Positions 4,174 to 64,000 of a DNA stretch of 64,000 nucleotides are shown piece by piece (within the stretch, counting starts at the first letter, position 1; each line of letters opens with the position of its first letter). The DNA is from an uncultured Aquitalea sp. Its GTDB lineage: Bacteria > Pseudomonadota > Gammaproteobacteria > Burkholderiales > Chromobacteriaceae. The notes under the pieces are model-generated. The model ran no database searches, had not been told where the DNA came from, and was given only the letters and a program-made list of their open reading frames with translations. Where the stretch lies: assembly GCF_945957525.1 (NCBI RefSeq), contig NZ_CAMFLA010000001.1, forward strand, positions 62,001 through 126,000. The letters are read 5' to 3'. A program made the translations under genes and the position numbers.

Positions 4174-4733
4174 TGATTCTCTTTGCCCTGATCCGGCTGC
4201 AGCAGTCCGAAATGAACAGTGCCGGCCTTGCCCGCGCGCAACGTTTTCCAACCGGGAAACGCCTCAGGCCAGTGTCGCGCCTCGACATACACCAGGCCGT
4301 CTTCGGCCAACAAGGGTTCAAGCAGCGGCATTACCTGCTGCAGCAAGTCCGAGTCGTAGGGCGGGTCCAGGAAGATGACATCGAAACGTTCGCGACTGGA
4401 GCGCACGAACTGCAGGGCGTCCATGCCCAGCACTTCGATGGCGCCGGCGGCCAGATCGCGCTGATTCGCTTTCAGCGACTCAGCCACCTTGCGCGACTTC
4501 TCCACCATCACCACCCGGCGGGCCTCGCGCGAGGCCGCCTCGAACCCCAATGCGCCGCTGCCGGCGAAGAGATCGAGGCACTGCTTGCCGTGCAGGCGCT
4601 GGCCGAGCCAGTTGAACAGGGTTTCTCTCACCCGGTCTGGCGTTGGCCGAAGACCTTCCGAATCGGGGAAAGGAAGCAGACGGCGGCGAAAGTCGCCGCC
4701 GATGATGCGTACTTTGTTTCTTTGCTGACTCAT
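4170..4733 (-). CDS. rsmD: 16S rRNA (guanine-966-N2) methyltransferase RsmD
   Basis: RsmD uses S-adenosylmethionine to methylate G966 of 16S rRNA in assembled 30S subunits. The 187-residue protein has the family pattern: GLRPTPDRVRETLFNWL near residues 27-43, the SAM-binding LDLFAGSGALGFEAASR near 54-70, and the N2-guanine methyltransferase signature DPPY near residue 122. The length matches the family. Two copies of the repeated 10-mer TTCGGCCAAC lie in this one gene, in opposite orientations (4302 and 4642). Confidence 0.95.
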   Translation of the reverse strand: MSQQRNKVRIIGGDFRRRLLPFPDSEGLRPTPDRVRETLFNWLGQRLHGKQCLDLFAGSGALGFEAASREARRVVMVEKSRKVAESLKANQRDLAAGAIEVLGMDALQFVRSSRERFDVIFLDPPYDSDLLQQVMPLLEPLLAEDGLVYVEARHWPEAFPGWKTLRAGKAGTVHFGLLQPDQGKENH

Positions 4734-4800
4734 GCTGCAACCAAATATGTCAAGCGCGCGATTCTACTCTTTTCCGCCGCACCGCGCCTCCCCACTGTCA

Positions 4801-6120
4801 TCAGGGTGCCGCGGGTGTTGCACCTGCCGTCACAAGCGCGAGCTTGTCCGGGTGAATGCGCCGGCGCCACGCGTCACGCACCTGGACCACAGTCAGCTCA
4901 GCTACTGCTTTTTGATAATCGTCCAGATAGGTGTCCGGCAGGCTGTATATCCCCATCACGGAAAGGTAGGACAGAAGCTTGGCGTTGCTGTCGTAGCGCA
5001 GGGGAAAGCCGCCGAGAATATTGTCTTTGGCCTGTTTCAACTCCGCCTCGGTCGGACCTTGCTCAACAAAATTCGCCAAGGTTTGCCTAACTACCTTCAA
5101 GGCGCTGGCGGCCTGATCGTTGCGCGTACTGAGCGACAGCGCGAAAGGCCCAGCCTGTTCCAGCGGTATGAAGTGACTGGACACGCCGTAGGTCAGGCCG
5201 CGCTTGGCGCGCACCTCTTCCATCAGTCGCGAGTCGAAGCCGCCACCGCCCAACACATAGTTGCCAACCACCAGCGCGTAATAGTCTGGATCCTCGCGCC
5301 GCAGTATCGACGCACCCAAGGCGATGTGCGTCTGCGCCCCGGGGTGGGCGATATGCTCGATCCGCCCGGCAGACTCGGGCACGACAGGGACGTCTCGCCA
5401 GGCTGCTGCGCCGCCCTTAGGCAAACCCTGCAGCAGACTGTCCACCACGCGCTGCGCGCCGGCTTTGTCTATATCGCCGACAATCGCCACCACAGCGCCT
5501 TGCGCCTGATAGCGCGCGCGCCAGAATGCCAGCAGATCTTCACGGCTGATGCGCCTCAGCGAGCTTGCGTCCTGCCAATCGTCGTTGCCATACGGGTGAT
5601 GACCGTACATCTGCCGCCCCAGCGCCCGCGCAGCCACTGAGCCACCGTTGTTCAGGGCTTGCTCAAGCCCCTCGATTGCGCTGGCTCTCTCGCGGTCCAG
5701 CACCTTTTGCGGGAAGAGCGGCGCTGTCAGCAGCCGGTTGGCCAACGCCAGCGCGCGTTGCTGCAACGCCGGCCGCGTAAGCGTCCGCACCCGGATGCCG
5801 GCGGATTCCTGATCGGCAAAAGTGCCGATCTCGGCGGCAATGTCGGCTTGCTCCTTGCGCAGCCTTTCCTCATCCCAACCCGGCGAGCCGGCATCCAGCA
5901 AGCCGGCCGTCATGCCGGCCAAGCCCTCTTTGCCTTGCGGATCGCGTCGGCTGCCAGCGTCAAAATCCACGCGCACATCCAGAATCGGGTTGGCATGCGC
6001 CTCCACCAGCAGCACGGTAGCGCCTTGCGGGCTGACCCAACGCTGGACATCTAGCGCCCAAGCTCCTTGCGCTGCAACGCACCCCAACAGCACGCCGCCC
6101 AACCATGCTTTAACGGACAA
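4801..6120 (-). CDS. M16-family peptidase homologue lacking the zinc motif
   Basis: A 439-residue secreted protein of the M16 (pitrilysin/processing peptidase) family. After a signal peptide ending near ...AWA-LDVQ, it has both M16 half-domains, but HxxEH is absent: the expected region reads GLAGMTAGLLDAG. The C-terminal domain keeps the RGLTYGV segment that helps bind substrate in M16 heterodimers. It is most simply the non-catalytic partner of the adjacent HxxEH protein, as MPP-alpha is to MPP-beta. The start is TTG at 6120, supported by an AAGGGAG ribosome binding site 5-6 bases away; it overlaps the upstream gene by 11 bp. Confidence 0.88.
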   Translation of the reverse strand: MSVKAWLGGVLLGCVAAQGAWALDVQRWVSPQGATVLLVEAHANPILDVRVDFDAGSRRDPQGKEGLAGMTAGLLDAGSPGWDEERLRKEQADIAAEIGTFADQESAGIRVRTLTRPALQQRALALANRLLTAPLFPQKVLDRERASAIEGLEQALNNGGSVAARALGRQMYGHHPYGNDDWQDASSLRRISREDLLAFWRARYQAQGAVVAIVGDIDKAGAQRVVDSLLQGLPKGGAAAWRDVPVVPESAGRIEHIAHPGAQTHIALGASILRREDPDYYALVVGNYVLGGGGFDSRLMEEVRAKRGLTYGVSSHFIPLEQAGPFALSLSTRNDQAASALKVVRQTLANFVEQGPTEAELKQAKDNILGGFPLRYDSNAKLLSYLSVMGIYSLPDTYLDDYQKAVAELTVVQVRDAWRRRIHPDKLALVTAGATPAAP

Positions 6121-7471
6121 AGCTTTCTCCCTTTATATCGTTCTGAGTATCCCTGGAGACCGGCTGCGGCGTCAGCGTGACTACGGTGAGTCGGTCGTCA
6201 ATCAGCGCGGCGGCCGCTTTTTGCACTTCTGCCGGGGTTACCGCGCGCAAGCGCTGCCGCATGGTGTCTTGATCACGCCAGGAAAAACCGACGGATTCCA
6301 GGGTGCCGATTTCCATGGCCTGCGCGAACATCGAATCACGCTGGTAGATCCTTTCCGCGTCCATTTGCAGTCGCACGCGCTCCAGTTCCTGTTCGCCGAT
6401 GCCGTCCTTGGCGATGCGGGCCACTTGTGCGCGGATGGCGGCTTCCAGCGCGGTATCGGTCTTGTCTGCGGCTCGGCTGGCGATGATGGTAAACAGCGCC
6501 CCTCCGCGCCCCAGCGCGTCATAGTTGGCCGAAGCCGACTGGGCAATGCTCTGCTCTCGCACCAGCGTACGCGGCAAGCGGCCTGCGCTATCGCCGCTCA
6601 GCACCTCCGCCAGCATGAAGTAGCCATAGGGGTCGGCCAAGTCGATCCGGCTGAGCCTCGGCGCCTGCCAGGCCATGGCGACAAAGCCCAGCCGCGACGG
6701 CGCTTTAACGCTGACGCGGCGTATTCCTTTCTGCTCCGGCTCCTGCTGGGGCCTCCGCTCCGGCAAGGCTACGGCAGGCAAGCCGCCGAATTGCTTCTGC
6801 GCTTCGGCAAACACGGCCTGCGGCTCCACATCGCCCACCACCACCAAGGTGGCGTTGTTGGGGGCGTACCACTGCCGATACCACTGGCGCGCATCGTCCG
6901 GCTTGGTGTGATCAAGATCGTCCATCCAGCCTATCACCGGATAACGCACCGGATTGGCCATGAAGGCATTGGCGTACAGGGCTTCAAACAGGACGCCGGT
7001 GGGCTTGTCGTCGGTGCGCCAGCGTCGCTCCTCTTTTACCACCTCCAGCTCTCGCCTGAAGGCGTCGTCGCTGAAAGAAAGGTTGCGCATGCGGTCTGCT
7101 TCGAGCTTCATCGCCAGCGGCAGGTGCTTTGCCGCCAGTTGCTGGAAATAAACCGTGTAGTCGCGGCTAGTAAAGGCGTTTTCCTTGCCGCCAGCCTGCG
7201 CGATGCGACGAGAGTACTCGCCATCCGGAACGGTGGGCGTGCCCTTGAACATCATGTGTTCCAGCAGATGGGACAAACCGGTATGCCCGTTCACCTCATC
7301 CACGCTACCTATGCGGTACCACAGTTGAGACACCACCACCGGCGAACGGGTATCCCGTTCGACAACAATCTTGAATCCGTTGGCCAACGTTTGTTCCTGA
7401 GGCGCAGCGGTTGCGCCCAGAGAAAACACGGCACCGCACGCGGCGGCGATCAGTAATATTTTTTTGTTCAC
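6110..7471 (-). CDS. M16-family zinc peptidase (catalytic subunit)
   Basis: A periplasmic zinc metallopeptidase of the M16 family. The inverted zinc motif HLLEH is present, with the downstream glutamate in EVVKEER about 75 residues later, so the active site looks complete. I prefer the GTG at 7471, which gives a clean signal peptide (MNKKILLIAAACGAVFSLG, then ATAAPQ). An ATG at 7495 would add eight polar residues in front; neither start has a strong ribosome binding site. The non-catalytic partner follows with an 11-bp overlap, so the two are probably made as a heterodimer. The substrate is unknown. Confidence 0.9.
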   Translation of the reverse strand: MNKKILLIAAACGAVFSLGATAAPQEQTLANGFKIVVERDTRSPVVVSQLWYRIGSVDEVNGHTGLSHLLEHMMFKGTPTVPDGEYSRRIAQAGGKENAFTSRDYTVYFQQLAAKHLPLAMKLEADRMRNLSFSDDAFRRELEVVKEERRWRTDDKPTGVLFEALYANAFMANPVRYPVIGWMDDLDHTKPDDARQWYRQWYAPNNATLVVVGDVEPQAVFAEAQKQFGGLPAVALPERRPQQEPEQKGIRRVSVKAPSRLGFVAMAWQAPRLSRIDLADPYGYFMLAEVLSGDSAGRLPRTLVREQSIAQSASANYDALGRGGALFTIIASRAADKTDTALEAAIRAQVARIAKDGIGEQELERVRLQMDAERIYQRDSMFAQAMEIGTLESVGFSWRDQDTMRQRLRAVTPAEVQKAAAALIDDRLTVVTLTPQPVSRDTQNDIKGESFVR

Positions 7472-8733: not shown

Positions 8734-9387
8734 ATGATTCAGTTTGACCAGGTCACCAAGCGTTACCCCGGTGGCAAAGAAGCCCTGAAGAACCTCTCCT
8801 TCACCATCGATACCGGCGAGATGGTGTTCCTCGCCGGTCACTCCGGCGCCGGTAAGTCCACCCTGCTCAAACTGGTGGCCGGCATCGAACGCGCCACCAA
8901 TGGCGGCGTGATCGTCAACGGTCAGAACCTGACCAAGCTGCGCGCCAGCCAGATTCCTTACGTTCGCCAGCATATCGGTATGGTGTTTCAGGATCACAAG
9001 CTGCTGTTTGACCGCAGCGTGTTCGACAACGTCATGCTGCCGCTGGACATCATTGGCTTCGATCGCCGCGACGCCGCGCGCCGGGTACGCGCCGCGCTGG
9101 ATAAAGTGGGGCTGCTTTCCCGCGAAAAAACCATGCCGATCAATCTGTCCGGCGGCGAGCAGCAACGTCTGTGCATAGCCCGCGCCGTGGTGCATCGCCC
9201 CAGCCTGCTGCTGGCGGACGAGCCTTCGGCCAACCTCGACCGCGCCTACGCGCTGGACATCATGGAGTTGTTCAAATCCTTCCATCAAGTAGGCGTCACC
9301 GTGGTGATTTCCGCCCACGACGAAACCCTGATGGAAGACTACGGACGCCGCATCATCCGGTTGAAGGAAGGACAGTTCGCCGCATGA
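8734..9387 (+). CDS. ftsE: Cell division ATP-binding protein FtsE
   Basis: FtsE is the ABC ATPase of the FtsEX complex, which in other bacteria activates septal peptidoglycan hydrolases. The 217-residue protein has Walker A GHSGAGKST at residues 35-43, signature LSGGEQQR near 138-145, Walker B LLLADEPS near 158-165 and the H-loop in SAHDE. AAGGGGGAT precedes the ATG. Its TGA overlaps the ftsX ATG (ATGA), so the two subunits are translationally coupled. Confidence 0.97.
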   Translation: MIQFDQVTKRYPGGKEALKNLSFTIDTGEMVFLAGHSGAGKSTLLKLVAGIERATNGGVIVNGQNLTKLRASQIPYVRQHIGMVFQDHKLLFDRSVFDNVMLPLDIIGFDRRDAARRVRAALDKVGLLSREKTMPINLSGGEQQRLCIARAVVHRPSLLLADEPSANLDRAYALDIMELFKSFHQVGVTVVISAHDETLMEDYGRRIIRLKEGQFAA

Positions 9388-10292
9388 AACACTTCTTCTA
9401 TTTGCACTGGCAAAGCGCCCGCTCCGCGCTGGGAAAAATCCTGCGTCAGCCTTTCGGCAGCCTGCTCACCCTGCTGATGCTGTCCATGGCGCTGGCCCTG
9501 CCGCTCTCGCTCTACTTGTCCATCAGCAGCCTGCAAGACTGGGTAGGGCACCTGACCGCCACTCCGCAGATCACCCTGTTCATGGAACAATCGGCCGAAG
9601 AGGCCGACCTCGCCGCCGTTTCCGGCACCCTGACCAAACACCCAAAGGTGCAAAGTTTCCGTTTTGTCGGCCGCCAGCAAGCGCTGAACGATCTGGAAAA
9701 ACGCAACGGCCTGCAAGGCCTGTCGGAGGGACTTACCGACAACCCTCTGCCGGATGCCTTCATCGTGACGCCCAAGTCGCTGGAACCGCACGAACTGGAA
9801 ATGCTGCAAAAGGAACTGTCGGGTTTGCCAATGGTGGAAACCGCGCAGTTTGACGCCAACTGGGCCAAGCGGCTGTATGGCATGGTGGAGATGGGCAAGA
9901 AACTGACGCTGTTTGTCGGCGCGGCGCTGGGCATCGCGCTGATTCTGGTCACCCACAACGCCGTCCGCATGCAGATTCTGGCGCGGCGAGACGAAATCGA
10001 AGTCTCCAAACTGATTGGCGCACCGGACAGTTTCATCCGTCGTCCTTTCATGTACCACGCCATGTGGCAAGGTATACTGGCCGGCCTGGCCGCCTGGGGG
10101 CTGACTTGCTGGCTGGTTTATTCGGCCAACCCCGCCATTGCGGAATTCGCCCGCCTCTACAACGAGCGCGTTGAACTGCGCATGCTGACGCCGCTGGAGC
10201 TGCTGGCGGTGCTGGCCATTGCCGCCGTGCTGGCCATGACCGGCGCGCGACTGGCCGCAGACCATCATCTGCGCCAGATCCATCCGCGCTGA
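9384..10292 (+). CDS. ftsX: Cell division protein FtsX
   Basis: FtsX is the membrane subunit of the FtsEX divisome complex. The 302-residue protein starts MKHFFYLHWQSARSALGK. It has a first transmembrane helix near residues 25-45, a periplasmic domain of about 120 residues, and three more helices in the FtsX permease domain. The start is the ATG overlapping the ftsE stop. A longer open frame upstream lies inside ftsE in another frame and is not the start. Confidence 0.96.
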   Translation: MKHFFYLHWQSARSALGKILRQPFGSLLTLLMLSMALALPLSLYLSISSLQDWVGHLTATPQITLFMEQSAEEADLAAVSGTLTKHPKVQSFRFVGRQQALNDLEKRNGLQGLSEGLTDNPLPDAFIVTPKSLEPHELEMLQKELSGLPMVETAQFDANWAKRLYGMVEMGKKLTLFVGAALGIALILVTHNAVRMQILARRDEIEVSKLIGAPDSFIRRPFMYHAMWQGILAGLAAWGLTCWLVYSANPAIAEFARLYNERVELRMLTPLELLAVLAIAAVLAMTGARLAADHHLRQIHPR

Positions 10293-11457: not shown

Positions 11458-13248
11458 TTACTCGTCTTCGCCGCCCCGGTATTTGGCCGGCAGCTTGTCA
11501 TAGACTTTCTGTGCTTCTTCGTGCAACGGCGCCCAGACCGGCACCGTTTCATCGATATCATCCAGATAGTTCTTGGCGTAAGTCGGGAACGAAGCCAAGG
11601 CGGTGCGAACGGTTTGCTTGGCTTCCTCTTCGCGGCCAGCCAGCGCCTGCATCTGCGCTTTCTTCATCATCACGTCCGGGTAGGGACGGAACGCCGTCAG
11701 ACGCTCTTCCCAAGCCAGCTTGGCCTGCAAATTATCCTTGCTGGCCACCAGATAATCATCCAGCGTCGACATGGCGTGATACGCGAACAACGGCTTTTGT
11801 TCAACGATTTCGGCCAATCTTGCTTCGCGCTTGACGTCGCGGGCTTGATTGCCGGTTTGCGTGTAAAGACCGACCAGTTCGTTGTAGGTGGACCACGTAC
11901 TCACCGACATATAGGCGATGCCCGCCAGCACCAACAGCCACACCAACCGCGCTGCGCGGCCTGCACTGCGGACATACACTGGCGACAATGTAGAGAACAC
12001 TACCAGCATGGCAAGGAAATACAGATACCACAGCGGGTACTCCAGCATGCTGTGGATCAGCGTGACCGAAATGCAACCCAGCGCCAGCAAACCTTCCGGC
12101 TCCGCCTTGCGCGTAAAGAAGGGCACAATCACCCAGGCAAAACCACCAAAAACCAGCAGCGTTACCGGCAAACCCATTTCCACCAGCAGCTGCAGCACCA
12201 GATTGTGGCAATTGGTGAACAAGCCGCTGTTGAAACCGGCGGAAGCAAACTGCGGCAGCGGCTGCAGCGCCACGCTCTGCGCCGCGTACTGCGACCAGCC
12301 CACACCCCATAAAGGATGCGCCGTGAATGCCATCCAGGCCTTGCCCATCTCCGCAATGCGGCGGGAGCCCATGTCATCGCCATTCGCCGCCAGTCGCGCC
12401 ACACCCGAGGTGTTGGTAACAGCACTATGGGTAAACAGCTCGATCAGATGATTCACCAAAGGCACGCAAAACTGGATGACGAAAATCGTCACGCACGCCA
12501 GCACCATGCTTAGCAACATGCGACGTGATTCGAAACTGCGCAGCCGCCAGTGCCACAAGCCGGCCAATACAGACAAGGCCACCAGATATAACAATGTTGT
12601 GCGCGAGGCAGCATAGGCCAGCATCAGGCCCAGCCACAGCACCAGCGCCATCAGCGCGCCGCGCCCAAGCCGATCGCGGCCAAACAGATAGACCCCGCTG
12701 ACAATGGACCACATCAGATAGTGGGCATACTGATTGCGCTGGCCGATATGACCAAAGATATTCGTAGTGGGATGGGAGCCGTCGTAAAACAGGCCCAAAG
12801 TTGACGCCAGTCCGGTTAGCTGAGCCAGGCCGATCAAGGACTGAATCAAACCACCGACAATCACCGCGCGCGCCAGCCAGACGGCAAATTCTTCCTGACC
12901 GATATCACGCTGCAGACTCCACGCCACGCACGCCAGCAAACCCAAGGCCAGCCAAGCCAGTGCCACCGCGTAAGTCATGCCGGGAAACAGCGCCTTGACC
13001 AACCAGGGCTGCACTGCCCACAGCGCAGCCAGCCCCAGGCACCACCACGCCGCCCGCGGCACTTCGGCAAACAGGCGTCCGTTCAGCAGCAGGCACAGTG
13101 CCGCAACCAGCATCAGCCACACCACATTCATCTCGCCGAACCATTGCGGCAAGGGCACGTAATGCACACGGGAAGCAAAGGGCACGAATGCGATCAGACA
13201 GCAGGCCAGCAAGGCCAGCCGCCTTGATAATGAAGACAGGGACATCAT
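11458..13248 (-). CDS. PglL/PilO-type oligosaccharyltransferase (Wzy_C family), copy 1
   Basis: A 596-residue polytopic membrane protein with about ten to twelve hydrophobic helices and a soluble C-terminal part. Hallmarks of the PglL/PilO/O-antigen-ligase superfamily are the GHIGQRNQYAHYL motif (near 165-178), the periplasmic loop NCHNLVLQLLVEMG (near 345-360) and HSMLEYPLWYLYFL (near 390-403). Family members transfer lipid-linked glycans to protein, often type IV pilin, in the periplasm. Two pilin genes and a second homologue lie just upstream on the same strand. The C-terminal 130 residues look like the PglL helical-repeat region. The donor glycan cannot be predicted. Confidence 0.85.
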   Translation of the reverse strand: MMSLSSLSRRLALLACCLIAFVPFASRVHYVPLPQWFGEMNVVWLMLVAALCLLLNGRLFAEVPRAAWWCLGLAALWAVQPWLVKALFPGMTYAVALAWLALGLLACVAWSLQRDIGQEEFAVWLARAVIVGGLIQSLIGLAQLTGLASTLGLFYDGSHPTTNIFGHIGQRNQYAHYLMWSIVSGVYLFGRDRLGRGALMALVLWLGLMLAYAASRTTLLYLVALSVLAGLWHWRLRSFESRRMLLSMVLACVTIFVIQFCVPLVNHLIELFTHSAVTNTSGVARLAANGDDMGSRRIAEMGKAWMAFTAHPLWGVGWSQYAAQSVALQPLPQFASAGFNSGLFTNCHNLVLQLLVEMGLPVTLLVFGGFAWVIVPFFTRKAEPEGLLALGCISVTLIHSMLEYPLWYLYFLAMLVVFSTLSPVYVRSAGRAARLVWLLVLAGIAYMSVSTWSTYNELVGLYTQTGNQARDVKREARLAEIVEQKPLFAYHAMSTLDDYLVASKDNLQAKLAWEERLTAFRPYPDVMMKKAQMQALAGREEEAKQTVRTALASFPTYAKNYLDDIDETVPVWAPLHEEAQKVYDKLPAKYRGGEDE

Positions 13249-20719: not shown

Positions 20720-20798
20720 GCTTGTTGCCGCCATGCCCTCGCGCAGCCCTTCGGCCAACCTCGGCCAGACTGGCTCACTACCGGCCGATCCGGCACAC

Positions 20799-25776: not shown

Positions 25777-27668
<1,892 letters not shown>

Positions 27669-50885: not shown

Positions 50886-50951
50886 GCTGGTCGCCGCAGC
50901 CAAAAGCGCAGCCATGCTACACTTCGGCAAACCGTTATTCTCACTTTGCCC

Positions 50952-51806
50952 ATGTCCAGCCGCCTTGCACGACCGGTATCCCGCCAGACCAATCTTCCCT
51001 TCATGGTGATGATTGCCGTCTCCGTGCTCGCGCATCTGATACTGTTGGGCGCCAGCGCCGTGCGCTGGGTGCTGCCGGTTCATCTACCCGCCGACCAGAT
51101 CATCAGCGTCAAACTCACCGAAAAGCCCGTACTGAACGCCCCCAAGACCGCCAGGCTGGCAGAGAACAACAATCAGGGCCAGGGCAACACCGCCAAGCAA
51201 GGCAAGCTGGCCACGCACAGCGCGCAACGCGGCGCACCCGACCCGATACCAGCCCAGCCAGCCGAACCTGCCGCGGATCAAGCCATGCCGGCCACCATCG
51301 CCCACCCGAAGCCGGGCAAACGCGCCATCACGCCCGCCACGCCAAGCAATGAAGCCGCTCCTGCCTTCTCTTCGGCCAACCTGCTGGGGCAGATCGATAA
51401 TCTGATGGCCAGCAAAGGCGACGACGGACTGCGCGACAGCCCCCAGGAAACCGGCAACGCCAACGGCAGCGGGGACAGCGCACGACGTTACGAATGGGCC
51501 CGGTACCAGACCGACTGGCGCCAGAAAATCGAACGCATCGGCAATATGAACTATCCGGATGAAGCCCGTCGCCAGAACGTGCACGGCTCCGTCACACTGG
51601 AGGTGATCATAATGCCCTCTGGCGCGCTGAAGAGCAGCCGCGTACTGCGCGGCTCCGGACACAACGTGCTGGATGACGCCGCCCTCAACATCGTGCGCAT
51701 GAGCGCCCCCTTCAGCGCCTTTCCGGCCTCGCTCTCCGGCCAGGGGCCGCGCAAGATCACGCAAACCTTCGCCTTTACCAAAGAAAACCAGCTCAGCAGC
51801 CGCTAA
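50952..51806 (+). CDS. TonB-like energy transducer
   Basis: A 284-residue inner-membrane-anchored protein with a single N-terminal transmembrane helix (MVMIAVSVLAHLILLGASAV), a Pro/Ala/Gln-rich periplasmic linker and a C-terminal TonB domain (NYPDEARRQNVHGSVTLEVIIMPSGALKSSRVLRGSGHNVLDDAA). TonB transmits proton-motive force to outer-membrane transporters. exbB and exbD are not adjacent. Proteins of this form accompany gshB in many betaproteobacteria; here a small unknown gene follows. The start is the ATG at 50952. Confidence 0.88.
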   Translation: MSSRLARPVSRQTNLPFMVMIAVSVLAHLILLGASAVRWVLPVHLPADQIISVKLTEKPVLNAPKTARLAENNNQGQGNTAKQGKLATHSAQRGAPDPIPAQPAEPAADQAMPATIAHPKPGKRAITPATPSNEAAPAFSSANLLGQIDNLMASKGDDGLRDSPQETGNANGSGDSARRYEWARYQTDWRQKIERIGNMNYPDEARRQNVHGSVTLEVIIMPSGALKSSRVLRGSGHNVLDDAALNIVRMSAPFSAFPASLSGQGPRKITQTFAFTKENQLSSR

Positions 51807-53179: not shown

Positions 53180-53205
53180 CGCCGCCAGCCTGTGGTTGGC
53201 CGAAG

Positions 53206-53252: not shown

Positions 53253-54014
53253 TCAAGCATGTCGCCCACCACATACCGGGCAGGCGGGATCGCGCGGAAA
53301 ACGCAGCTGGCGGAATTCACCGCTCAAAGCATCGTACAGGGTAAGGCGGCCAGTAACCGCTGCATGACCGGCCAGCAACTTGATTGCCTCCACCGCCTGC
53401 AGGCTGCCAATTACCCCCACCAGCGGCGACAACACGCCGAAAGTCGCACACGGGCCATCGCCAACCTCGCCCTCTTCGGCAAACAGGCAGTGATAGCAGG
53501 GGGTGCCCGGCTGGCGCGGGTCAAACACCGCCAACTGGCCGGCAAAGCGCACCGCCGCACCGGATACCAGCGGTACTCGGGCAAGCACCGAAGCGCGGTT
53601 GACAGCATGTCGGGTAGCGAAGTTGTCGGAACAGTCCAACACCAGATCGTGCGCGCTCACAGCAGCCTGCAAATCCTCGCCTTGCAAGCGCGCCGCCAGC
53701 GCATGCACCTGTACGGCGGGATTCATCGCATGCATGCGCCGCGCGGCGGATGCCGCCTTGTTGACGCCCAGACTTTGCATGTCGTGGGCAATCTGACGCT
53801 GCAGATTGGTCAGCTCCACCTGGTCGTCATCCGCCAATGTGATGCTGCCTACACCGGCGCTTGCCAGATACAAGGCCACCGGCGAGCCCAGTCCGCCCGC
53901 GCCGACCACCAGCACGCGCGCAGCCAACAGCCGGCGCTGCCCTTCCACATCGATCTCCGGCAACAGAATGTGCCGGCTGTAGCGCAACAGCGCCTCGTCA
54001 TTCAATTCGGTCAT
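53253..54014 (-). CDS. moeB: MoeB/ThiF-type sulfur-carrier adenylyltransferase
   Basis: A 253-residue E1-like enzyme that adenylates the C-terminus of a sulfur carrier (MoaD or ThiS). It starts LLRYSRHILLPEIDVEGQ and has the nucleotide-binding GAGGLGSPVALYLASAGVG, NLQRQIAH, two zinc Cys pairs (CYHC and CPVC) and GPCATFGVLSPLVG. MoeB and ThiF cannot be separated by sequence alone here; the closest pattern is HesA/MoeB/ThiF. The start at 54014 gives the usual MTELNDEALLRYSRH N-terminus. Confidence 0.87.
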   Translation of the reverse strand: MTELNDEALLRYSRHILLPEIDVEGQRRLLAARVLVVGAGGLGSPVALYLASAGVGSITLADDDQVELTNLQRQIAHDMQSLGVNKAASAARRMHAMNPAVQVHALAARLQGEDLQAAVSAHDLVLDCSDNFATRHAVNRASVLARVPLVSGAAVRFAGQLAVFDPRQPGTPCYHCLFAEEGEVGDGPCATFGVLSPLVGVIGSLQAVEAIKLLAGHAAVTGRLTLYDALSGEFRQLRFPRDPACPVCGGRHA

Positions 54015-55389: not shown

Positions 55390-57491
55390 TAGGCCTCCAG
55401 CAATGGCAGGGTGAGAAGAATTCGCGCGCCTTGCTGCTCGGCATTCTCCAATGTGACCTGTCCGCGGTGCTCCTCTACGATCTTCTTCACCACGGCCAAA
55501 CCAAGGCCTGTCCCCTTGGATTTACTGGTCACGTACGGCTCGAATGCGCGAGTGAGGATGTCCGTGGCGAAGCCCGGACCGTTATCCTGGACGCAGACGG
55601 TCGCGTTTCTTCCTTCTTGTCGGCTGCTAATGTGAATCATCGGGTTGACAACGTCAAGGACGGCATCTTGCGCATTCTGAATCAGATTGTGCAAAACCTG
55701 CCTCAACAATGCCGGGTCGCCCATGATCATCAGCGGCCGGTCTTCCAGTTCCATCTTAACAGCCGGACTGGATTCGTACAGGGTCATCACCTCCCGGATC
55801 ACCTGATTGAGATCAAGCTCCGTGAGCTTGATGCGCGGGGCACGCGCGTAATCGCGGAATGCGTCAACCATGCCTTTGAGCGCCGCCACCTGTTTGACGA
55901 TGGTGTCGGTCGCCCGTTTGAGCATTTCGGCGTCCGGCGCTTCCAGCTTGCCGGACAATTTCATCGCCAGCCGTTCGGCCGACAGCTGGATGGGCGTGAG
56001 CGGATTACGGATTTCATGGGCCAGCCGCTTGGCTACCTCGCCCCACGCCGCGTCGCGCTGCGCGCGCGCCAGGTCGGTAATATCGTCGAACACCACCACA
56101 TAGCCGCCGCCGGACTGTTCCGGCAGCCGGGCGCCGCGCACCAGCAGGGTGCGCTCTCCCTGTGCGGTAACGTATTCCAGCTGGGTGTTCCAGTCTTCCT
56201 GCTTGGGATCTTCCGCGTGCTGCAGCATGACTTCCACTAGCGGCGTCATGGCCGGCACCAGCGTGGACCACTGCCAGGCCGGCAAGGGCGCTATCTCGGA
56301 AAAATCCACACCCAGAATCCGCCCGGCGCTGGTATTGGCGGCGCGCACCAGCCATTCGCCGTCCAGCGCCATCACGCCGGCGCTGAGCGTGGCCAGAATG
56401 CTTTCCAGGTAAAGTTTGCCGCTTTCCAGCGCCTGCTGGTTCTGCACCGCCGTCAGCCTCGCCTCTTCCAGTTGCTGCGTCATGCGGTTGAACAGGGTGG
56501 TGAGCATGCCCAGTTCATCGCGGCGAAACACCGGATGCCGCCGCGAGAAGTCGCCCTGCGCCACCGCCCGCGTACCTGCGGCCAGCTCCGACAGCGGAGC
56601 GGACAAGCGTTCGGACATGAACAGCGCGAAAGCCAGCGCCGAGGTCAGCGCCAACAGGCAGGCCAGCGCCAGCGTCAGCATGTAAAACGTCTTTAAGCCA
56701 TCCCGCGACAACAAAAGCTGGTGATACTCCGAGCGCGCATTTTCAATCTGTTCCGCGTCGCGGGCAATGCCCGGCGGTGCGGACTGCAAGACCTGCAGCA
56801 CGCGCATCTGATCGTCCAGGCCGCGATAAGCCAGTAAAACACGCAGATTCAGGCCGGAAGCGTCGTTCTCGATACTCTTGTCGGCGATGCGCGGCTTGAG
56901 CGCGCGCACCGCATTGCGGGCCGGTGGTTGCGGCAGGCCGGAGCCGCCATTGGCGAATGCCTGCAACTCACCGTTGCGATTGAACAGGGCCACTTCTTTG
57001 AGGCCGAACTGTTCGCGCAAGCGCTCCAGTCGCGAGGGCAAAAGCCCATCCGGCGCGCCATCGATATCGTCCAGAATCACGCGACTCTTTCGGCCAACGT
57101 CGTCCAACACGTAGTTGAGCGAGCTGCGGCCCAAGTCCAGGCCGCGCTCCAGCGCCGACTCGACGCGCACGTCGAACCAGCTTTCGATGCTGCGAGTGAG
57201 AAATTGGGCGGAAATGGTGAAAACCAGCAAGCCCGGCACCAGGGACACCAAGGCAAACATCACCACCAGCCGCTGGGTGAGCTTGGCGCCGAATACGCGG
57301 TTTTTCACGCGCTGGCGCAAGCGCAGCAACTGGCGGCCCACGATGGCCAGCAAGGCCAGCAACAAGGCGCTGTTGAAGCCGAACACCCACCAATAATATT
57401 CAGCCAGCTTGGAGGCGTTGCCGGTGGCCACCGCCAGAAGATAGAGCATGATGGCGCCGAACGCGGCCAGGGCCGTCACGGCAAAACGCAT
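55389..57491 (-). CDS. ntrY: NtrY-like membrane sensor histidine kinase
   Basis: A 700-residue sensor kinase. In order: two N-terminal helices, a third helix (VVMFALVSLVPGLLVFTIS), a periplasmic sensor region to about residue 260, a fourth helix (FYMLTLALACLLALTSALAF), HAMP, PAS (LYLESILATLSAGVMALDGEW), HisKA with the phospho-acceptor His in RLAHEIRNPLTPIQ, and HATPase_c (NLIQNAQDAV, DNGPGF, GTGLGL). The start ATG overlaps the DUF4390 stop (TGATG), and its end is one base from the ntrX start. The NtrYX system senses nitrogen or redox state in relatives. Confidence 0.95.
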   Translation of the reverse strand: MRFAVTALAAFGAIMLYLLAVATGNASKLAEYYWWVFGFNSALLLALLAIVGRQLLRLRQRVKNRVFGAKLTQRLVVMFALVSLVPGLLVFTISAQFLTRSIESWFDVRVESALERGLDLGRSSLNYVLDDVGRKSRVILDDIDGAPDGLLPSRLERLREQFGLKEVALFNRNGELQAFANGGSGLPQPPARNAVRALKPRIADKSIENDASGLNLRVLLAYRGLDDQMRVLQVLQSAPPGIARDAEQIENARSEYHQLLLSRDGLKTFYMLTLALACLLALTSALAFALFMSERLSAPLSELAAGTRAVAQGDFSRRHPVFRRDELGMLTTLFNRMTQQLEEARLTAVQNQQALESGKLYLESILATLSAGVMALDGEWLVRAANTSAGRILGVDFSEIAPLPAWQWSTLVPAMTPLVEVMLQHAEDPKQEDWNTQLEYVTAQGERTLLVRGARLPEQSGGGYVVVFDDITDLARAQRDAAWGEVAKRLAHEIRNPLTPIQLSAERLAMKLSGKLEAPDAEMLKRATDTIVKQVAALKGMVDAFRDYARAPRIKLTELDLNQVIREVMTLYESSPAVKMELEDRPLMIMGDPALLRQVLHNLIQNAQDAVLDVVNPMIHISSRQEGRNATVCVQDNGPGFATDILTRAFEPYVTSKSKGTGLGLAVVKKIVEEHRGQVTLENAEQQGARILLTLPLLEA

Positions 57492-58087
57492 CAGCCGCCC
57501 TCCTTGACATTGAGGGAGGTCCAGTTGGAGGACAGGCTCCAGTCGGAAGAGCCCAAAGCATTTAACTGGAAGGGTTTGGGCAACTCGCCGATGTCCAGTA
57601 CCAAGCGGATGCGGCCCGCCACTTTGCCGGGGCTTTTCGGGTCCAGCGCGCCGTTGTCCAGTACGCGCCAGTCCTGAATGGCGCCCACTACGCCCATGGC
57701 TTCGTTCAGTGAGCCGTAGTAATTGGAAAAGCTGCCGATGGTGACGCGGTAGCGCGAGGTCAGCGGTTGGTAGCTGAGTTTGTAGGCCAGCGAAGCATGC
57801 GGATCGAACCACTCCTTGAGGTCAAGGTAGTAGGCGGTGCTGCGCGGTTTGGTCAGCTGGAATTCCAGCCGGAAGGTGAGGGTAACGCCCTGCTGCAGGG
57901 CATCGCTGAGGCTGTTCGGCAAACGGGTCTGAAAGCGGCTGCTTACCGACAATTGGCCGTCAGGCGTCAGTTCTGCCTCGGCTCGACGCGCCACAATGCC
58001 TTCGGCCTGCGCCGTCATGACGGTGCAGGCCAGCAGCCAGATGCACAGGCTAATGTTTCTCAAGCAGCGCGTAATAGAAGCCGTCAT
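57491..58087 (-). CDS. DUF4390 family exported protein
   Basis: A 198-residue protein with a signal peptide (IRNISLCIWLLACTVMTAQA type, cut before EGIVAR) and the DUF4390 domain: FRLEFQLTKPRSTAYYL, LAYKLSYQPLTSRYRVTIG and PGKVAGRIRLVLDIGELPKPFQL. The function is unknown. In betaproteobacteria it almost always lies between rsmB and ntrY. It overlaps the 3' end of rsmB by 38 bp if the ATG at 58087 is used; TTG at 58063 is an alternative. Confidence 0.87.
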   Translation of the reverse strand: MTASITRCLRNISLCIWLLACTVMTAQAEGIVARRAEAELTPDGQLSVSSRFQTRLPNSLSDALQQGVTLTFRLEFQLTKPRSTAYYLDLKEWFDPHASLAYKLSYQPLTSRYRVTIGSFSNYYGSLNEAMGVVGAIQDWRVLDNGALDPKSPGKVAGRIRLVLDIGELPKPFQLNALGSSDWSLSSNWTSLNVKEGG

Positions 58088-59297
58088 GGCGCTCACAAGG
58101 GAGCAGCTGCCGCTGCTCAAGACAGACGGCGTCAGCGTGGCGGCTCAGGAACGCCGTCAGCTGCTGCTGGTTTTCTTCCGGAAAAATCGAGCACGTAGCG
58201 TAAAGCATTTTCCCGCCGGAAGCGAGTAGCGGCCAGAGCGCGTCCACCATGGCGGCCTGCTGGCGCGCCAGTGCGGCGAAATCGCCCGGACGGCGCAGCC
58301 ACTTGATATCCGGATGCCGACGCACCACTCCGGAAGCCGAGCAGGGCACATCGGCCAGGATGCGATCAAAGCGGCGGCCTTCGGCAAACGTGTCGGCCTG
58401 GCCAGCATCAGCTGCCAACAAGGTGGCGTTCAGACCGATGCGGTCCAGATTGTCCCGCACCCGTTGCAGGCGTTGTGCGTCGATATCCAGCGCGGTAACG
58501 TCCACGTCGGCGATTTCCAGCATGTGGCAGGTCTTGCCGCCCGGCGCGGCGCAGGCATCCAGCACATGCTGTCCGGGCTGGAGATCCAGCAGCCGCGCGG
58601 CCTGTTGCGCGCCCCAGTCCTGCACCGATACCCGGCCTTCGGCAAACCCCGGCAGTTCGCGCACATTCACCGGCCGGGCCAGCAGCACCGCAGTGTCGTC
58701 CAGCGCCTCGCCCTCCATGCCGGCCTGGCGCAAGGCGTCCAGATAGGCCTTGGCGTCGCCATGGCGGCGATTGACGCGCAGCGTCATCGGCGGATGGCTG
58801 TTATTGGTTTCCAGCACGCGCTGCCATTCTTGCGGATAGGCTTTCTGCATGGCCTTGATCCACCAGCGCGGATGGCTGGTGGCGGCTTCCAGATCGCGAT
58901 CCGCCGCCGCGATCAGGGCCTCCCGCTGGCGCAGGAAGTTGCGCAGCACGCCGTTGACCAAGCCTTTGAAACGGCCTTGCTCCAAGCGCTCGGCCATTTT
59001 CACCGCTTCGTTCACCACCGCGTATTCGGCGGCGCGGGTATGCGTCAGCTGGTACATGGCCACCATCAGCAGACGCTCGACGCGCGCCTCCGGCAAGGGC
59101 TTGGCCACCAACCGTCGCAGCCAGAAGCGCAGACGGCCCAGATGGCGCAACGAGCCGTAGCTGATGTCCTGCAGCGCGGCGCGCTCGGGCGGCGGCAAAT
59201 CGCCCTGACGCTGGGCTTGGGCCAGCGCCTCGGTGAGCGTCTTGCCGGATTCCACATCGCCGATCACGCCGGCGGCCAATTGCTGAATGTAATGCAT
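58050..59297 (-). CDS. rsmB: 16S rRNA (cytosine-967-C5) methyltransferase RsmB
   Basis: RsmB methylates C967 of 16S rRNA with S-adenosylmethionine. The 415-residue protein has the N-terminal NusB-like domain (residues 1-135), the SAM site LDACAAPGGKTCHMLE near 243-258, ADVPCSASGVVRRHPDIKW with one catalytic Cys near 315, and ATCSIFPEENQQQ with the second near 370. The length is normal. It is part of the def-fmt-htpX-rsmB-DUF4390-ntrY-ntrX run. Confidence 0.95.
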   Translation of the reverse strand: MHYIQQLAAGVIGDVESGKTLTEALAQAQRQGDLPPPERAALQDISYGSLRHLGRLRFWLRRLVAKPLPEARVERLLMVAMYQLTHTRAAEYAVVNEAVKMAERLEQGRFKGLVNGVLRNFLRQREALIAAADRDLEAATSHPRWWIKAMQKAYPQEWQRVLETNNSHPPMTLRVNRRHGDAKAYLDALRQAGMEGEALDDTAVLLARPVNVRELPGFAEGRVSVQDWGAQQAARLLDLQPGQHVLDACAAPGGKTCHMLEIADVDVTALDIDAQRLQRVRDNLDRIGLNATLLAADAGQADTFAEGRRFDRILADVPCSASGVVRRHPDIKWLRRPGDFAALARQQAAMVDALWPLLASGGKMLYATCSIFPEENQQQLTAFLSRHADAVCLEQRQLLPCERHDGFYYALLEKH

Positions 59298-60278: not shown

Positions 60279-61199
60279 TCACTCGCCCAGCCGGGTTCCC
60301 GCCAGCGAGGCGCGGCCCGCGACAAACTCCCTTGCCGCCAGTCGCTTACCGCCAGCCGCCTGCAGCTGGCTCAATGCCACCAGCCCCTCACCGCAGCCCA
60401 CCACCACCCCGTCGGCATCGGCCCTGACAACCTTGCCCGGTTCGGCCTGCCCGGCCACCGCCTGCGCCATCCACAGTTTGAGCGGCTCGCCGGCCAGCAG
60501 CGTATGCGCGCCCGGCACCGGGTTGTAGGCGCGAATGGCCCGCGCCACCTGCTCGGCCGGCAGCGTCCAATCCACCAGCGCCTCTGCCTTGGTCAGCTTG
60601 TGCGCATAGGTAACGCCCTCTTCCGGCTGCTTGACCGGCGCAAGCGCATCCAGCCCTGCCAGGGCGGCAACAATCGCCTCCGCGCCGCAAACAGCCAGCC
60701 GGTCATGCAGGCTGGCGGCAGTTTCATCGGCGGCAATGTCCAGTTCATGCACCGACAGCATGTCGCCGGTATCCAGTCCCACGTCCATCTGCATGATGGT
60801 GATGCCGGTCTGGGCATCCCCCGCCAGCAATGCCCGCTGAATGGGCGCCGCGCCGCGCCAGCGGGGCAGCAGCGAAGCATGGATATTGAGACAGCCGCGC
60901 TGCGGAATCTCCAGCACCGCTTTAGGCAACAGCAAGCCGTAGGCCGCCACCACCATCACTTCGGCGCCCGCTTCGGCCAACATGGCCTGCGCTTCTTCCG
61001 TTTTCAGACTCAGCGGCTGCTCAACCCGCAGGCCGGCGGCCAGGGCCACTTCCTTGACCGGGCTGGGCTTGAGCTTCATGCCGCGCCCGGCCGGGCGGTC
61101 CGGCTGAGTCAGCACCAGGGGAATATCATGCCCGGCATCGATCAGCGCCTTCAGGGCCAGAGCGGCGAATTCGGGCGTGCCCGCAAAAATCAGTTTCAT
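60279..61199 (-). CDS. fmt: Methionyl-tRNA formyltransferase
   Basis: Fmt formylates initiator Met-tRNA with 10-formyl-THF. The 306-residue protein starts MKLIFAGTPEFAALALKAL and has the catalytic segment LNIHASLLPRWRGAAPIQRAL, then GITIMQMDVGLDTGDML, and a C-terminal OB domain. I use the ATG at 61199. def lies 257 bp upstream, farther than usual for the def-fmt pair, with a hairpin between. Confidence 0.96.
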   Translation of the reverse strand: MKLIFAGTPEFAALALKALIDAGHDIPLVLTQPDRPAGRGMKLKPSPVKEVALAAGLRVEQPLSLKTEEAQAMLAEAGAEVMVVAAYGLLLPKAVLEIPQRGCLNIHASLLPRWRGAAPIQRALLAGDAQTGITIMQMDVGLDTGDMLSVHELDIAADETAASLHDRLAVCGAEAIVAALAGLDALAPVKQPEEGVTYAHKLTKAEALVDWTLPAEQVARAIRAYNPVPGAHTLLAGEPLKLWMAQAVAGQAEPGKVVRADADGVVVGCGEGLVALSQLQAAGGKRLAAREFVAGRASLAGTRLGE

Positions 61200-61225
61200 G
61201 GAAAGCCTTGTTGCGTAAAGAGAAA

Positions 61226-61246: not shown

Positions 61247-61456
61247 AGATTATTGACACCCCCTATCGCTTCCCGGTCAGAAAGCGAGGCTCCCTTGCGG
61301 GGCAAGGGGGGATTGGGAGTAAACGGGAAGGCCGCGAAACCAACAGCTTGGCCGAAGGGCCCTTTCTCCCAATGACTTTGTCAGCAGCCTGAGCACGCTT
61401 CGCGCGTCTCTACAAATCCGGCCATGAGCCATCGCTTGCCCATGTTGGCCGAAGGC
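61247..61456. other. Structured intergenic stretch between def and fmt
   Basis: No gene is seen in this 210-bp stretch. It holds an imperfect inverted repeat, ATTGGGAG at 61312 and CTCCCAAT at 61366, with extra pairing inside. It also has a one-mismatch copy of the 10-mer at 61347 and an exact copy at 61444, immediately past the def stop. Confidence 0.5.
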
Positions 61457-62085: not shown

Positions 62086-63123
62086 ATGCGTAAAAGTATT
62101 ATATCGCTTGCTTTGGCTCTGGGACTGGCCCTCCCAGCATTTTCCGACACGCTGACCCTGCGCGCCGATGCGCCCACCCGTTACACGGTGGTGAAGGGCG
62201 ACACGCTGTGGGGCATCTCCGGCCGCTATCTCAAGAGCCCATGGAAGTGGCCGCAGCTGTGGCGGATGAACAAAAGCGAAATCCGCAACCCGCACTGGAT
62301 CTATCCCGGCGACGTGCTGGTGCTCACCTACGTCAACGGCGAACCCCGCCTGACGCTGGAAAAAGGCGCGCAAGGCGACATCAAGTTATCGCCGCAAATG
62401 CGCATGGATGACATCGACCAGGCCGTCAACAGCATCCCGGCCAAGGCGATCGAACCTTTCCTCAAACGCCCCCTGGTCACCGACCAGGCCCAGTTCCAGA
62501 GTGCGCCGGTCCTCATCGCCGGCCCGGAACAACGCCTTGCCTTCGGCACCGGCGACAAGGTTTACGCCAATGGCGTGACCGAACCGGGCAGCTGGCAGGC
62601 CTTCCGTCCCGGCAAACCGCTGATCGACCCGGACACCAAGGAAAACCTGGGTTACGAGGTTGTCTACGGCGGCGACCTCGTGGTGGACAAGATCTCGCCC
62701 GATGTGCAAACCCTGCGCGTCACCGGCATCGCCGAAGAAATTCTCAAGGGCGACAGACTGGTGAAAGCGCCGAAAGACCAGTTCGTACGCTATGTGCCGC
62801 ACGCGCCCGACAACGGCGTACAAGGCAAGATCATCGCCATCTACAACGGCGTGGACGGCGCGGCCCAATACTCCACCGTGATCATTAATCGCGGCAGCCG
62901 CGAAGGCGTGGAAAGCGGCCATGTGTTCGGCGTGTTCAAGAAAGGCAAGCCGATGGAAATCACCGCTGCAGACGGCCAGAAGAAGGTTGTGCTGCTCCCC
63001 GCCGAGCCGGGCGGCAAGGTGTTTATCTACCGCGTATTCGAGAAGGTTTCCTACGGTTTGGTCATGGAAAGCGCCACCGAACTGAACAAGGGAGACGTTA
63101 TCGCCGCGCCGGAAGCGGAGTGA
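62086..63123 (+). CDS. LysM domain peptidoglycan-binding protein
   Basis: A 345-residue exported protein with signal peptide MRKSIISLALALGLALPAFS and one LysM domain at about residues 31-85 (TRYTVVKGDTLWGISGRYLK, WIYPGDVLVLTY). A C-terminal part of about 250 residues has no recognisable catalytic motif. The family regularly precedes dprA in betaproteobacteria. Its stop overlaps the dprA GTG start (GTGA). A cell-wall role is inferred from the LysM. Confidence 0.9.
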   Translation: MRKSIISLALALGLALPAFSDTLTLRADAPTRYTVVKGDTLWGISGRYLKSPWKWPQLWRMNKSEIRNPHWIYPGDVLVLTYVNGEPRLTLEKGAQGDIKLSPQMRMDDIDQAVNSIPAKAIEPFLKRPLVTDQAQFQSAPVLIAGPEQRLAFGTGDKVYANGVTEPGSWQAFRPGKPLIDPDTKENLGYEVVYGGDLVVDKISPDVQTLRVTGIAEEILKGDRLVKAPKDQFVRYVPHAPDNGVQGKIIAIYNGVDGAAQYSTVIINRGSREGVESGHVFGVFKKGKPMEITAADGQKKVVLLPAEPGGKVFIYRVFEKVSYGLVMESATELNKGDVIAAPEAE

Positions 63124-64000
63124 CGGACAAAGCCTGGCTGCAACTGGCGCTGACGCCGGGCATAGGCCCGGCGGGTTTTTTGCGCCTGTTGCAGGCTTTC
63201 GGCCAACCTGAAGCGGCAATTGCCGCTCCTGCGGCTCATACCACGCCCTTCATCGGCCCGGCTGCCGCGCAAGCCCTGCGCGAGGGTGCCTCAGCAGCCG
63301 ATGCCGATGCGGCGCTGATCTGGGCCGAACAAGCAGGCTGCAGCCTGATGACCCTGGCCGACCCCGACTACCCGCAAGCGCTGGCGGAGTCTCCCTCCCC
63401 GCCGCCGCTTCTGTTTCTGCGCGGTCGCAGAGCAATGCTGCAACAACCACTGCTGGCCATGGTGGGCAGTCGCAGCGCAACCCCGGTTGGCGAGAAAACC
63501 GCCCGGCGATTTGCCGGACAATTGGCGGAGCACGGCTACACCATCGTCAGCGGACTGGCCGGCGGCATCGACGCTGCCGCGCATCGGGGCGCGCTGGAAT
63601 ATCCGTCGTCCACCATCGCCGTCATCGGCACCGGCATCGACCGCGTCTACCCTTCGGCCAACCGCCAGTTGGCCCGCGATATCAGCGATCAAGGCCTGAT
63701 CGTTTCCGAGTTCGCCCTTGGCCTGGGCCCGCTCGCCAGCCACTTTCCCCGCCGCAACCGCATCATCGCTGCCCTGTCGCGCGGTTGCCTTGTCGTGGAA
63801 GCCGGACTGAAATCCGGCTCGCTGATCACCGCAAGACTGGCAGCCGAGCAGGGGCGCGAGGTCATGGCGGTCCCAGGTTCCATCCATAATGCGCAAGCCC
63901 GCGGCTGCCACCAGCTGATTCGCGACGGCGCAGCGCTGGTGCAGAGCGCAGAAGACGTCCTGGATGAAGTGGGCCGCCTCCAGCGCCAAGCCAAGCCCAA
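63120..64000 (+). CDS. dprA: DNA processing protein DprA (3' end outside window)
   Basis: DprA protects incoming single-stranded DNA and loads RecA during natural transformation. The visible 293 residues start at a GTG overlapping the LysM gene stop. They include an N-terminal SAM-like part (LQLALTPGIGPAGFLRLLQAFG) and the Rossmann-like core with MVGSRSATPVGEKTARRFAG, SGLAGGIDAAAHRGAL, GTGIDRVYP and SEFALGLGPLASHFPRRNR. The usual length is about 360-390 residues, so the C-terminal domain is beyond the edge. Two exact TTCGGCCAAC copies lie inside it (63198, 63653). Confidence 0.95.
   Translation, partial: MTDKAWLQLALTPGIGPAGFLRLLQAFGQPEAAIAAPAAHTTPFIGPAAAQALREGASAADADAALIWAEQAGCSLMTLADPDYPQALAESPSPPPLLFLRGRRAMLQQPLLAMVGSRSATPVGEKTARRFAGQLAEHGYTIVSGLAGGIDAAAHRGALEYPSSTIAVIGTGIDRVYPSANRQLARDISDQGLIVSEFALGLGPLASHFPRRNRIIAALSRGCLVVEAGLKSGSLITARLAAEQGREVMAVPGSIHNAQARGCHQLIRDGAALVQSAEDVLDEVGRLQRQAKP

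What the first reader, a model, noticed from the sequence alone, without database searches (positions are those of the whole stretch)
4302..63662. Highly over-represented non-palindromic 10-mer TTCGGCCAAC: candidate DNA uptake sequence of a different lineage from Neisseria
I count 23 exact copies in 64 kb (15 plus, 8 minus), about one per 2.8 kb, plus several single-mismatch copies. A hand estimate from about 60% GC gives well under one expected copy. Copies fall in unrelated genes (rsmD, ftsE, ftsX, lptD, pdxA, xth, ntrY, fmt, dprA) and in different reading frames, so shared protein motifs do not explain them. The preceding base is C in 18 of 23, suggesting an 11-12-mer CTTCGGCCAAC(C/A). Density, dispersion and presence in both coding and intergenic DNA match DNA uptake sequences. 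The known Neisseriaceae dialects share a GCCGTCTGAA-like core, which this word does not resemble and which I did not notice here. I do not recall a description of it.
Basis: partly seen in the sequence, partly recalled or inferred. Interest (0 to 1): 0.92.

Follow-up and report, generated by a model that had tools for sequence, protein, structure and literature searches.

The report
Unreported DNA-uptake word in Aquitalea
This Aquitalea genome carries nearly 2,000 copies of a ten-letter DNA word in two spellings, related genera carry their own dialects of it, and it is likely a password that lets the cell prefer DNA of its own kind, although an earlier survey found no obvious password of this sort in five relatives.

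Summary
In detail: TTCGGCCAAC occurs 23 times in the window (0.26 expected) and 1,368 times in the 4.05 Mb genome, against 21 for the reversed word. A second spelling, TTCGGCAAAC, adds 616 (reversed: 8). The host is an Aquitalea (Chromobacteriaceae). Codon usage, strand polarity or a longer repeat do not explain it. There are dialects: TTCGGCCAAC here and in genera g2, g3 (Crenobacter), g6, g10; TGCGGCCAAC(C/G)TT in Vogesella; CTCGGCCAAC in g4. Of 37 family genomes counted for all three, 15 are rich in one; nine other Aquitalea, g7, g8 and g9 are not. In 291 genomes outside the family a pooled pattern never exceeds 221 matches (family: 1,304 to 2,348). All 15 rich genomes encode a ComP orthologue, the DNA uptake sequence (DUS) receptor of Neisseria; four g9 genomes lack it, but other poor genomes have it. 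Best explanation: a ComP-read DUS. Frye et al. 2013 saw no obvious DUS in five relatives and dated DUS after the split from Chromobacterium; these results suggest an older or separate origin. The CTG core of Neisseria DUS is absent, so this is a new variant. Uptake and binding are untested.

The parts
4302..4311 (+). TTCGGCCAAC, antisense in rsmD
4642..4651 (-). TTCGGCCAAC, outside called genes
6524..6533 (-). TTCGGCCAAC, sense in CDS 6110-7495-
9225..9234 (+). TTCGGCCAAC, sense in ftsE
10121..10130 (+). TTCGGCCAAC, sense in ftsX
20750..20759 (+). TTCGGCCAAC, outside called genes
22953..22962 (+). TTCGGCCAAC, antisense in CDS 22944-23516-
24744..24753 (-). TTCGGCCAAC, outside called genes
26337..26346 (+). 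TTCGGCCAAC, antisense in CDS 26304-26999-
29986..29995 (+). TTCGGCCAAC, sense in lptD
32430..32439 (-). TTCGGCCAAC, antisense in pdxA; the same word stands at the aligned place in G010 (g2)
38135..38144 (+). TTCGGCCAAC, antisense in CDS 37667-38419-
38408..38417 (+). TTCGGCCAAC, antisense in CDS 37667-38419-
38683..38692 (-). TTCGGCCAAC, sense in CDS 38524-39618-
44590..44599 (+). TTCGGCCAAC, antisense in CDS 44553-45149-
45902..45911 (-). TTCGGCCAAC, sense in xth; CTCGGCCAAC at the aligned place in G012 (g4)
51371..51380 (+). TTCGGCCAAC, sense in CDS 51003-51806+
53195..53204 (-). TTCGGCCAAC, outside called genes
57089..57098 (+). TTCGGCCAAC, antisense in sensor kinase gene
60972..60981 (+). 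TTCGGCCAAC, antisense in fmt
61444..61453 (-). TTCGGCCAAC, outside called genes
63198..63207 (+). TTCGGCCAAC, sense in dprA
63653..63662 (+). TTCGGCCAAC, sense in dprA
6803..6812 (+). second spelling TTCGGCAAAC
13063..13072 (+). second spelling TTCGGCAAAC
17337..17346 (-). second spelling TTCGGCAAAC
22230..22239 (-). second spelling TTCGGCAAAC
36530..36539 (-). second spelling TTCGGCAAAC
37617..37626 (+). second spelling TTCGGCAAAC, outside called genes
39547..39556 (+). second spelling TTCGGCAAAC
44685..44694 (+). second spelling TTCGGCAAAC
50923..50932 (+). second spelling TTCGGCAAAC, outside called genes
53475..53484 (+). second spelling TTCGGCAAAC
57915..57924 (+). second spelling TTCGGCAAAC
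58380..58389 (+). second spelling TTCGGCAAAC
58638..58647 (+). second spelling TTCGGCAAAC
63120..64000 (+). dprA (cut by the window end): DNA-processing protein of transformation, carries two words
   Evidence: TIGR00732 E 1.7e-75

Best explanation
TTCGGC(C/A)AAC is present 1,984 times in this Aquitalea genome and is likely a DNA uptake sequence: a mark that the predicted minor pilin ComP would bind on free DNA, so that the type IV pilus would preferentially pull in DNA of the cell's own kind. Shown here: the number and spread of the words, the lineage dialects, some word places shared between genera, and a ComP orthologue by sequence profile in all 15 word-rich genomes (fold predicted for one protein, 98% identical to the own one). 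Inferred: ComP reads the word; uptake then passes through the pilus secretin and ComEC to DprA and RecA. Copies would accumulate because word-bearing DNA is taken up more often and, by recombination, spreads the word (molecular drive). Each lineage's ComP would have shifted its specificity, which would change the first two letters (TT, TG, CT) while CGGCCAAC stays. Lineages that lost the preference (other Aquitalea, g7, g8, g9) would then have lost the words.
Against: No uptake, binding or transformation test. ComP is necessary at best: full-length profile matches also occur in word-poor genomes, 9 of 9 Aquitalea (168 to 187 bits), 5 of 5 g7 (113 to 165, two of them perhaps a paralogue) and 4 of 4 g8 (116 to 154), so its presence does not predict the word. 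PF16732 hits are widespread (56 of 61 genomes), and NCBIfam has no model reaching 1e-10 for the own ComP. The CTG core that is essential in Neisseriaceae (Frye 2013) is absent. Close inverted pairs, described for Neisseria terminators, are rare here: 5 pairs among 241 words. Word sites are not better conserved than other 10-mers between word-rich genera (5 of 39 exact against 13.8%), and 0 of 6 aligned Vogesella TG words have this genome's word in place.
Confidence: 0.85

Rival explanations
1. A genome-maintenance motif, such as a Chi-like RecBCD site, a KOPS or a nucleoid-occlusion site, kept for recombination or segregation rather than uptake.
For: Short, dispersed, over-represented, present in coding DNA.
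Against: Chi and KOPS are polar along a replichore (recalled); here 60 forward and 56 reverse over 324 kb of one contig, in stretches whose GC skew all has the same sign. Background counts in nine other Aquitalea genomes and dialects between genera are hard to square with a conserved housekeeping reader. Polarity was not tested over a whole chromosome.
Confidence: 0.06
2. An uptake word read by a receptor other than ComP (another minor pilin or a secretin-associated protein).
For: ComP orthologues also occur in word-poor genomes; G000 has three further PF16732 pilins.
Against: The ComP orthologue is the pilin whose closest solved structures are the known DUS receptors; it is present in all 15 word-rich genomes, while the four g9 genomes, with no match above 65 bits, have no word.
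Confidence: 0.12
3. Codon or peptide bias: LAE, SAN, FGQ and FAE peptides with preferred codons create the word.
For: 77 of 127 words in called genes sit in one antisense frame reading LAE.
Against: Codon usage predicts 8.4 LAE words, 75 seen; SAN 27 against 3.5, FGQ 17 against 4.2; word-poor Aquitalea show 1, 1 and 0. The word is enriched outside called genes.
Confidence: 0.01
4. A dispersed mobile repeat (REP or MITE) or a regulator binding site.
For: Some words form close inverted pairs (5 pairs).
Against: No conserved unit beyond about 13 bases; near-Poisson spacing, 171 words at a mean of 1.9 kb, cv 0.91; mostly inside genes on either strand.
Confidence: 0.02

Closest known systems
DNA uptake sequence (DUS) dialects of Neisseriaceae, read by ComP (Frye et al. 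2013, PMC3630211)
   Same: 10 to 12 letters, large copy numbers, lineage dialects, inside and outside genes, ComP orthologue; reverse complement AGGTTGGCCGAA agrees with muc and sim dialects at 9 of 12, with AG, king and eik at 8
   Different: The CTG core, conserved in all eight dialects and essential there, reads CCG; letter +5 also differs from the seven dialects compared. The paper found no obvious DUS in five relatives (Laribacter, Lutiella, Pseudogulbenkiania, two Chromobacterium). Few inverted pairs. Two spellings in one genome that differ in the middle of the word (S. muelleri also holds two dialects).
Uptake signal sequence (USS) of Pasteurellaceae
   Same: Dispersed self-recognition word for transformation (recalled; PMC12616744 seen as title and start of abstract)
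   Different: Other sequence and class (recalled); that paper's title predicts ComN as receptor.
ComP minor pilin, PDB 2m3k, 5hz7, 2nba
   Same: Sequence and predicted fold
   Different: The Chromobacteriaceae rows lack the C-terminal insertion seen in the N. dentiae row; two cysteines are invariant in the 19-row alignment.

Membership tests
Self-recognition uptake word (DUS/USS) in the broad sense | Extreme over-representation across the chromosome | tested here: met
   1,368 plus 616 copies against 21 and 8 for reversed words
Self-recognition uptake word (DUS/USS) in the broad sense | Not explained by codons, strand polarity or a longer repeat | tested here: met
   polarity on one 324 kb stretch of contig only
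Self-recognition uptake word (DUS/USS) in the broad sense | Carried by an organism with transformation genes | tested here: met
   ComEC, DprA, type IV pilins; competence itself untested
Self-recognition uptake word (DUS/USS) in the broad sense | Raises uptake or transformation of DNA that bears it | not testable with these tools
   needs an uptake assay
Neisseriaceae DUS | CTG at +6 to +8 and A at +10 in every dialect (Frye 2013) | tested here: not met
   Aligned core letters are CCG; +10 is A in TT and TG, G in CT
Neisseriaceae DUS | Dialects follow the phylogeny | tested here: met
   TG and CT are each confined to one clade, TT is spread over the rest with gaps; single-gene tree
Neisseriaceae DUS | Frequent inverted pairs at terminators | tested here: not met
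   5 close pairs among 241 words in 464 kb
ComP family | Sequence match to solved ComP above other pilins | tested here: met
   2e-10 against 3.8e-5 for the next pilin
ComP family | ComP fold | tested here: met
ComP family | Sequence-specific DNA binding | not testable with these tools
   needs EMSA or SPR

The most novel reading that the evidence does not exclude
Uptake-word language is older than Neisseria: a ComP-read word GTTGGCCG existed in the common ancestor of Chromobacteriaceae and Neisseriaceae, the Neisseria CTG dialects are one derived branch of it, and it has been lost several times (most Aquitalea, Chromobacterium, Paludibacterium, g9), leaving sister species as natural experiments in losing and switching a mating language.
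Probability: 0.45. Interest if true: 0.87.

Novelty: new variant of a known kind. Interest (0 to 1): 0.8.

Why it matters
The papers I found describe DUS in Neisseriaceae; the survey that looked furthest says they arose after the split from Chromobacterium, where no ComP was found by BLAST (Frye 2013). Three dialects that differ only in the first two letters, together with sequenced relatives that lack the word, give matched ComP-word pairs for working out how ComP reads DNA, an open structural question (PMC12061091, passages). They also allow direct tests of how a species gains, changes or loses its DNA self-recognition, and whether that isolates species.

Tried and rejected
Codon bias, polar genome motif, mobile repeat and operator site were tested and set aside. 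The strongest PF16732 hit in G000 (C14:124554; beside a gene that looks like PilY1 to me) was first taken as the receptor; it scores 66.5 bits with the ComP profile where C9:75207 scores 166.4, and was dropped. An N. dentiae pilin taken as ComP turned out to be PilX, another was not ComP; the ComP row in A1 is the latter's tandem neighbour, assigned by alignment only. The first HrpA tree used wrong-strand ORFs for some rows and is discarded. A top k-mer of g9 is the antisense of pilin start codons, an artefact of choosing pilin stretches. A ComP residue rule (Ser-Thr-x-Trp-Pro in word-rich genomes) fails for Vogesella, G018, G014 and G021; net charge does not separate word-rich from word-poor. 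Foldseek/VIA rows below ComP and PilV are mostly general pilins; nothing is concluded from their order. Papers: searches listed no report of this word or of a DUS in Aquitalea, Vogesella or Crenobacter; of the 23 papers holding the 10-mer string 20 were listed, none of them on DNA uptake by title and start of abstract. PMC10715097 and PMC11316581 were seen as passages only. Frye 2013 Table S1D, which lists over-represented 10-mers of Pseudogulbenkiania, Lutiella and Chromobacterium, could not be opened and may contain the word.
Full report
OBSERVATION. TTCGGCCAAC occurs 23 times in the window, 15 plus and 8 minus, where shuffles give 0.26; it is the commonest 10-mer. The genome (G000, 4,045,770 bases, 35 contigs) has 1,368 copies, almost equal on both strands, against 21 for the reversed word. 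An order-4 Markov model on 464 kb predicts 4.2, 170 are seen. Genome-wide it has 616 copies against 8; in the 40 other genomes counted it has at most 66 (the nine other Aquitalea 25 to 66).

HOST. The window's HrpA is 93% identical to that of Aquitalea pelogenes, whose genome coincides with G003, a genus-mate by the tool's kinship (same pilin coordinates). So genus g1 is Aquitalea. g5 is Vogesella (G031 and V. urethralis share coordinates, so they are one genome). G032 (g7) has 4,751,080 bases, which I recall as the length of C. violaceum ATCC 12472. g2, g4, g6, g9 and g10 are unnamed.

NOT AN ARTEFACT. Of 170 words, 43 lie outside called genes, which leave 12% of the sequence; the 127 in genes use five strand-and-frame classes, dominated by antisense LAE (77), then SAN (25) and FGQ (19) (my own simple gene caller). 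Codon usage predicts 8.4 LAE words where 75 are seen; SAN 3.5 and 27; FGQ 4.2 and 17; FAE, for the second spelling, 5.0 and 33. In word-poor Aquitalea the same counts are 1, 1, 0 and 4. SAN and FAE peptides are also commoner here than in word-poor Aquitalea (3.9 against 1.5 and 4.3 against 1.4 per 10,000 residues), as if the word shaped the proteome; LAE (14.3 against 10.4) stays within the spread of the family (10.4 to 21.4). The window and 13 further stretches of contig C1 hold 60 forward and 56 reverse words, all with negative GC skew, so this contig shows no Chi-like polarity. No conserved unit extends beyond about 13 letters. Spacing is near Poisson, mean 1.9 kb for both spellings; the largest gap, 14.5 kb, is the ribosomal protein operon.

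DIALECTS. TTCGGCCAAC is rich in 8 of 61 family genomes: G000 1,368, G010 1,104, G019 893, G026 183, G011 2,168, G020 579, G014 1,245, G018 1,851 (G018 is 80% complete with 7% contamination, G026 84% complete). Vogesella uses TGCGGCCAAC followed by C/G and TT: 1,871 to 2,057 copies in all five g5 genomes tested, controls 4 to 14 (flanks from G013); the eight further g5 genomes were not counted for it. g4 uses CTCGGCCAAC: 1,590 and 1,940, beside 78 and 77 copies of TT (controls 4 and 6); G020 holds 165 CT beside its 579 TT. Of the 37 family genomes counted for all three words, 22 are rich in none: nine Aquitalea (one 61% complete), five g7, four g8 and four g9; in g8, G024 and G033 show a small excess of CT (92 and 85 against 21 and 17). 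Pooled k-mer searches of 564 kb of word-poor Aquitalea, 180 kb of G032, 160 kb of g9 and 140 kb of g8 reveal nothing comparable (highest z 11.4). In an even draw of 300 genomes of the order, the pooled pattern YKCGGCCAAC has 1,304 to 2,348 matches in five of the nine family genomes drawn (G000, G013, G014, G022, G027) and at most 221 in the 291 others, usually near the reversed control; the ratio to it exceeds 5 in a few genomes with small counts, such as 82 against 16 in G132. Positive control: the same k-mer method finds the published DUS in Neisseria, Alysiella and Eikenella loci.

HISTORY. In a HrpA tree (30 family genomes, six outgroups) this genome is sister to the eight word-poor Aquitalea included, Vogesella (TG) is sister to G014 (TT), and g2, g3 and g4 form a deeper group into which N. 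dentiae and Alysiella fall on a long branch with moderate support (83/77). Some word places are shared across genera at about 77% identity: 7 of 26 TT words elsewhere have this genome's word at the aligned place, and 2 of 5 CT words have TTCGGCCAAC there, as expected of dialect change in place; of 6 aligned TG words none does (at least one site is seen twice through overlapping stretches). Word sites are not kept better than other 10-mers between word-rich genera (5 of 39 against 13.8%; two sites counted twice), and in word-poor Aquitalea 0 of 53 are kept against 17.9% (three sites counted twice). Either many sites arose here after the split or the sisters lost them faster than drift. The simplest reading, an ancestral TT word with losses and two dialect changes, is inferred from one gene tree.

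COMPARISON. Frye et al. 2013 (PMC3630211; passages and sections 6 and 7 read) report eight DUS dialects sharing CTG, no obvious DUS in Laribacter, Lutiella, Pseudogulbenkiania and two Chromobacterium genomes, no ComP by BLAST in C. violaceum, and an origin after that split. Here a ComP orthologue is found in G032 (159 bits), and word-rich genomes in the same family. Read as AGGTTGGCCGAA, the word agrees with muc and sim DUS at 9 of 12 letters; 1.1% of 20,000 shuffles do as well when offsets of up to two, both strands and seven dialects are allowed (the wad dialect was left out). That is suggestive of common origin, not proof, and the flank AG was chosen after the fact. The aligned core reads CCG, so it is not filed as a Neisseriaceae DUS; it works like one.

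Noticed in passing
window, 13 sites (6803 to 58647): Second spelling TTCGGCAAAC, 616 copies genome-wide, enriched to this degree only in this genome among 41 counted.
   Followed up: yes
G000:C1:34214-48761: Largest word-free gap in the C1 stretches is the ribosomal protein operon plus tuf, GC 55.5%.
   Followed up: partly
L033:8761-8787, L034:6025-6050, L042:2152-2174, L044:9998-10025: Words in close inverted pairs that would form hairpins, with no evident T run in the printed flanks.
   Followed up: no
crown Aquitalea stretches (L071-L090, L112, L262-L268): Weak word AGAACCTGAA, 10 seen against 0.4 in 564 kb, spread over 10 of 28 loci; it ends like Neisseriaceae DUS (CTGAA), perhaps by chance.
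   Followed up: no
G018 stretches L066-L070: A second over-represented word GCTTAAGCA, 21 seen against 1.7 in 100 kb.
   Followed up: no
L186 (Bordetella ansorpii), L170 (Betaproteobacteria MAG): Highly repeated 10-mers (24-27 and 15-16 copies among the top rows) that look like CRISPR or tandem arrays.
   Followed up: no
G018:C3:1153932-1157770: HrpA gene interrupted by stops and frame breaks, perhaps assembly error in an 80% complete genome.
   Followed up: no
G024, G033 (g8): Small excess of CTCGGCCAAC (92, 85) and TTCGGCCAAC (62, 45) over controls: perhaps relics of a lost word.
   Followed up: no
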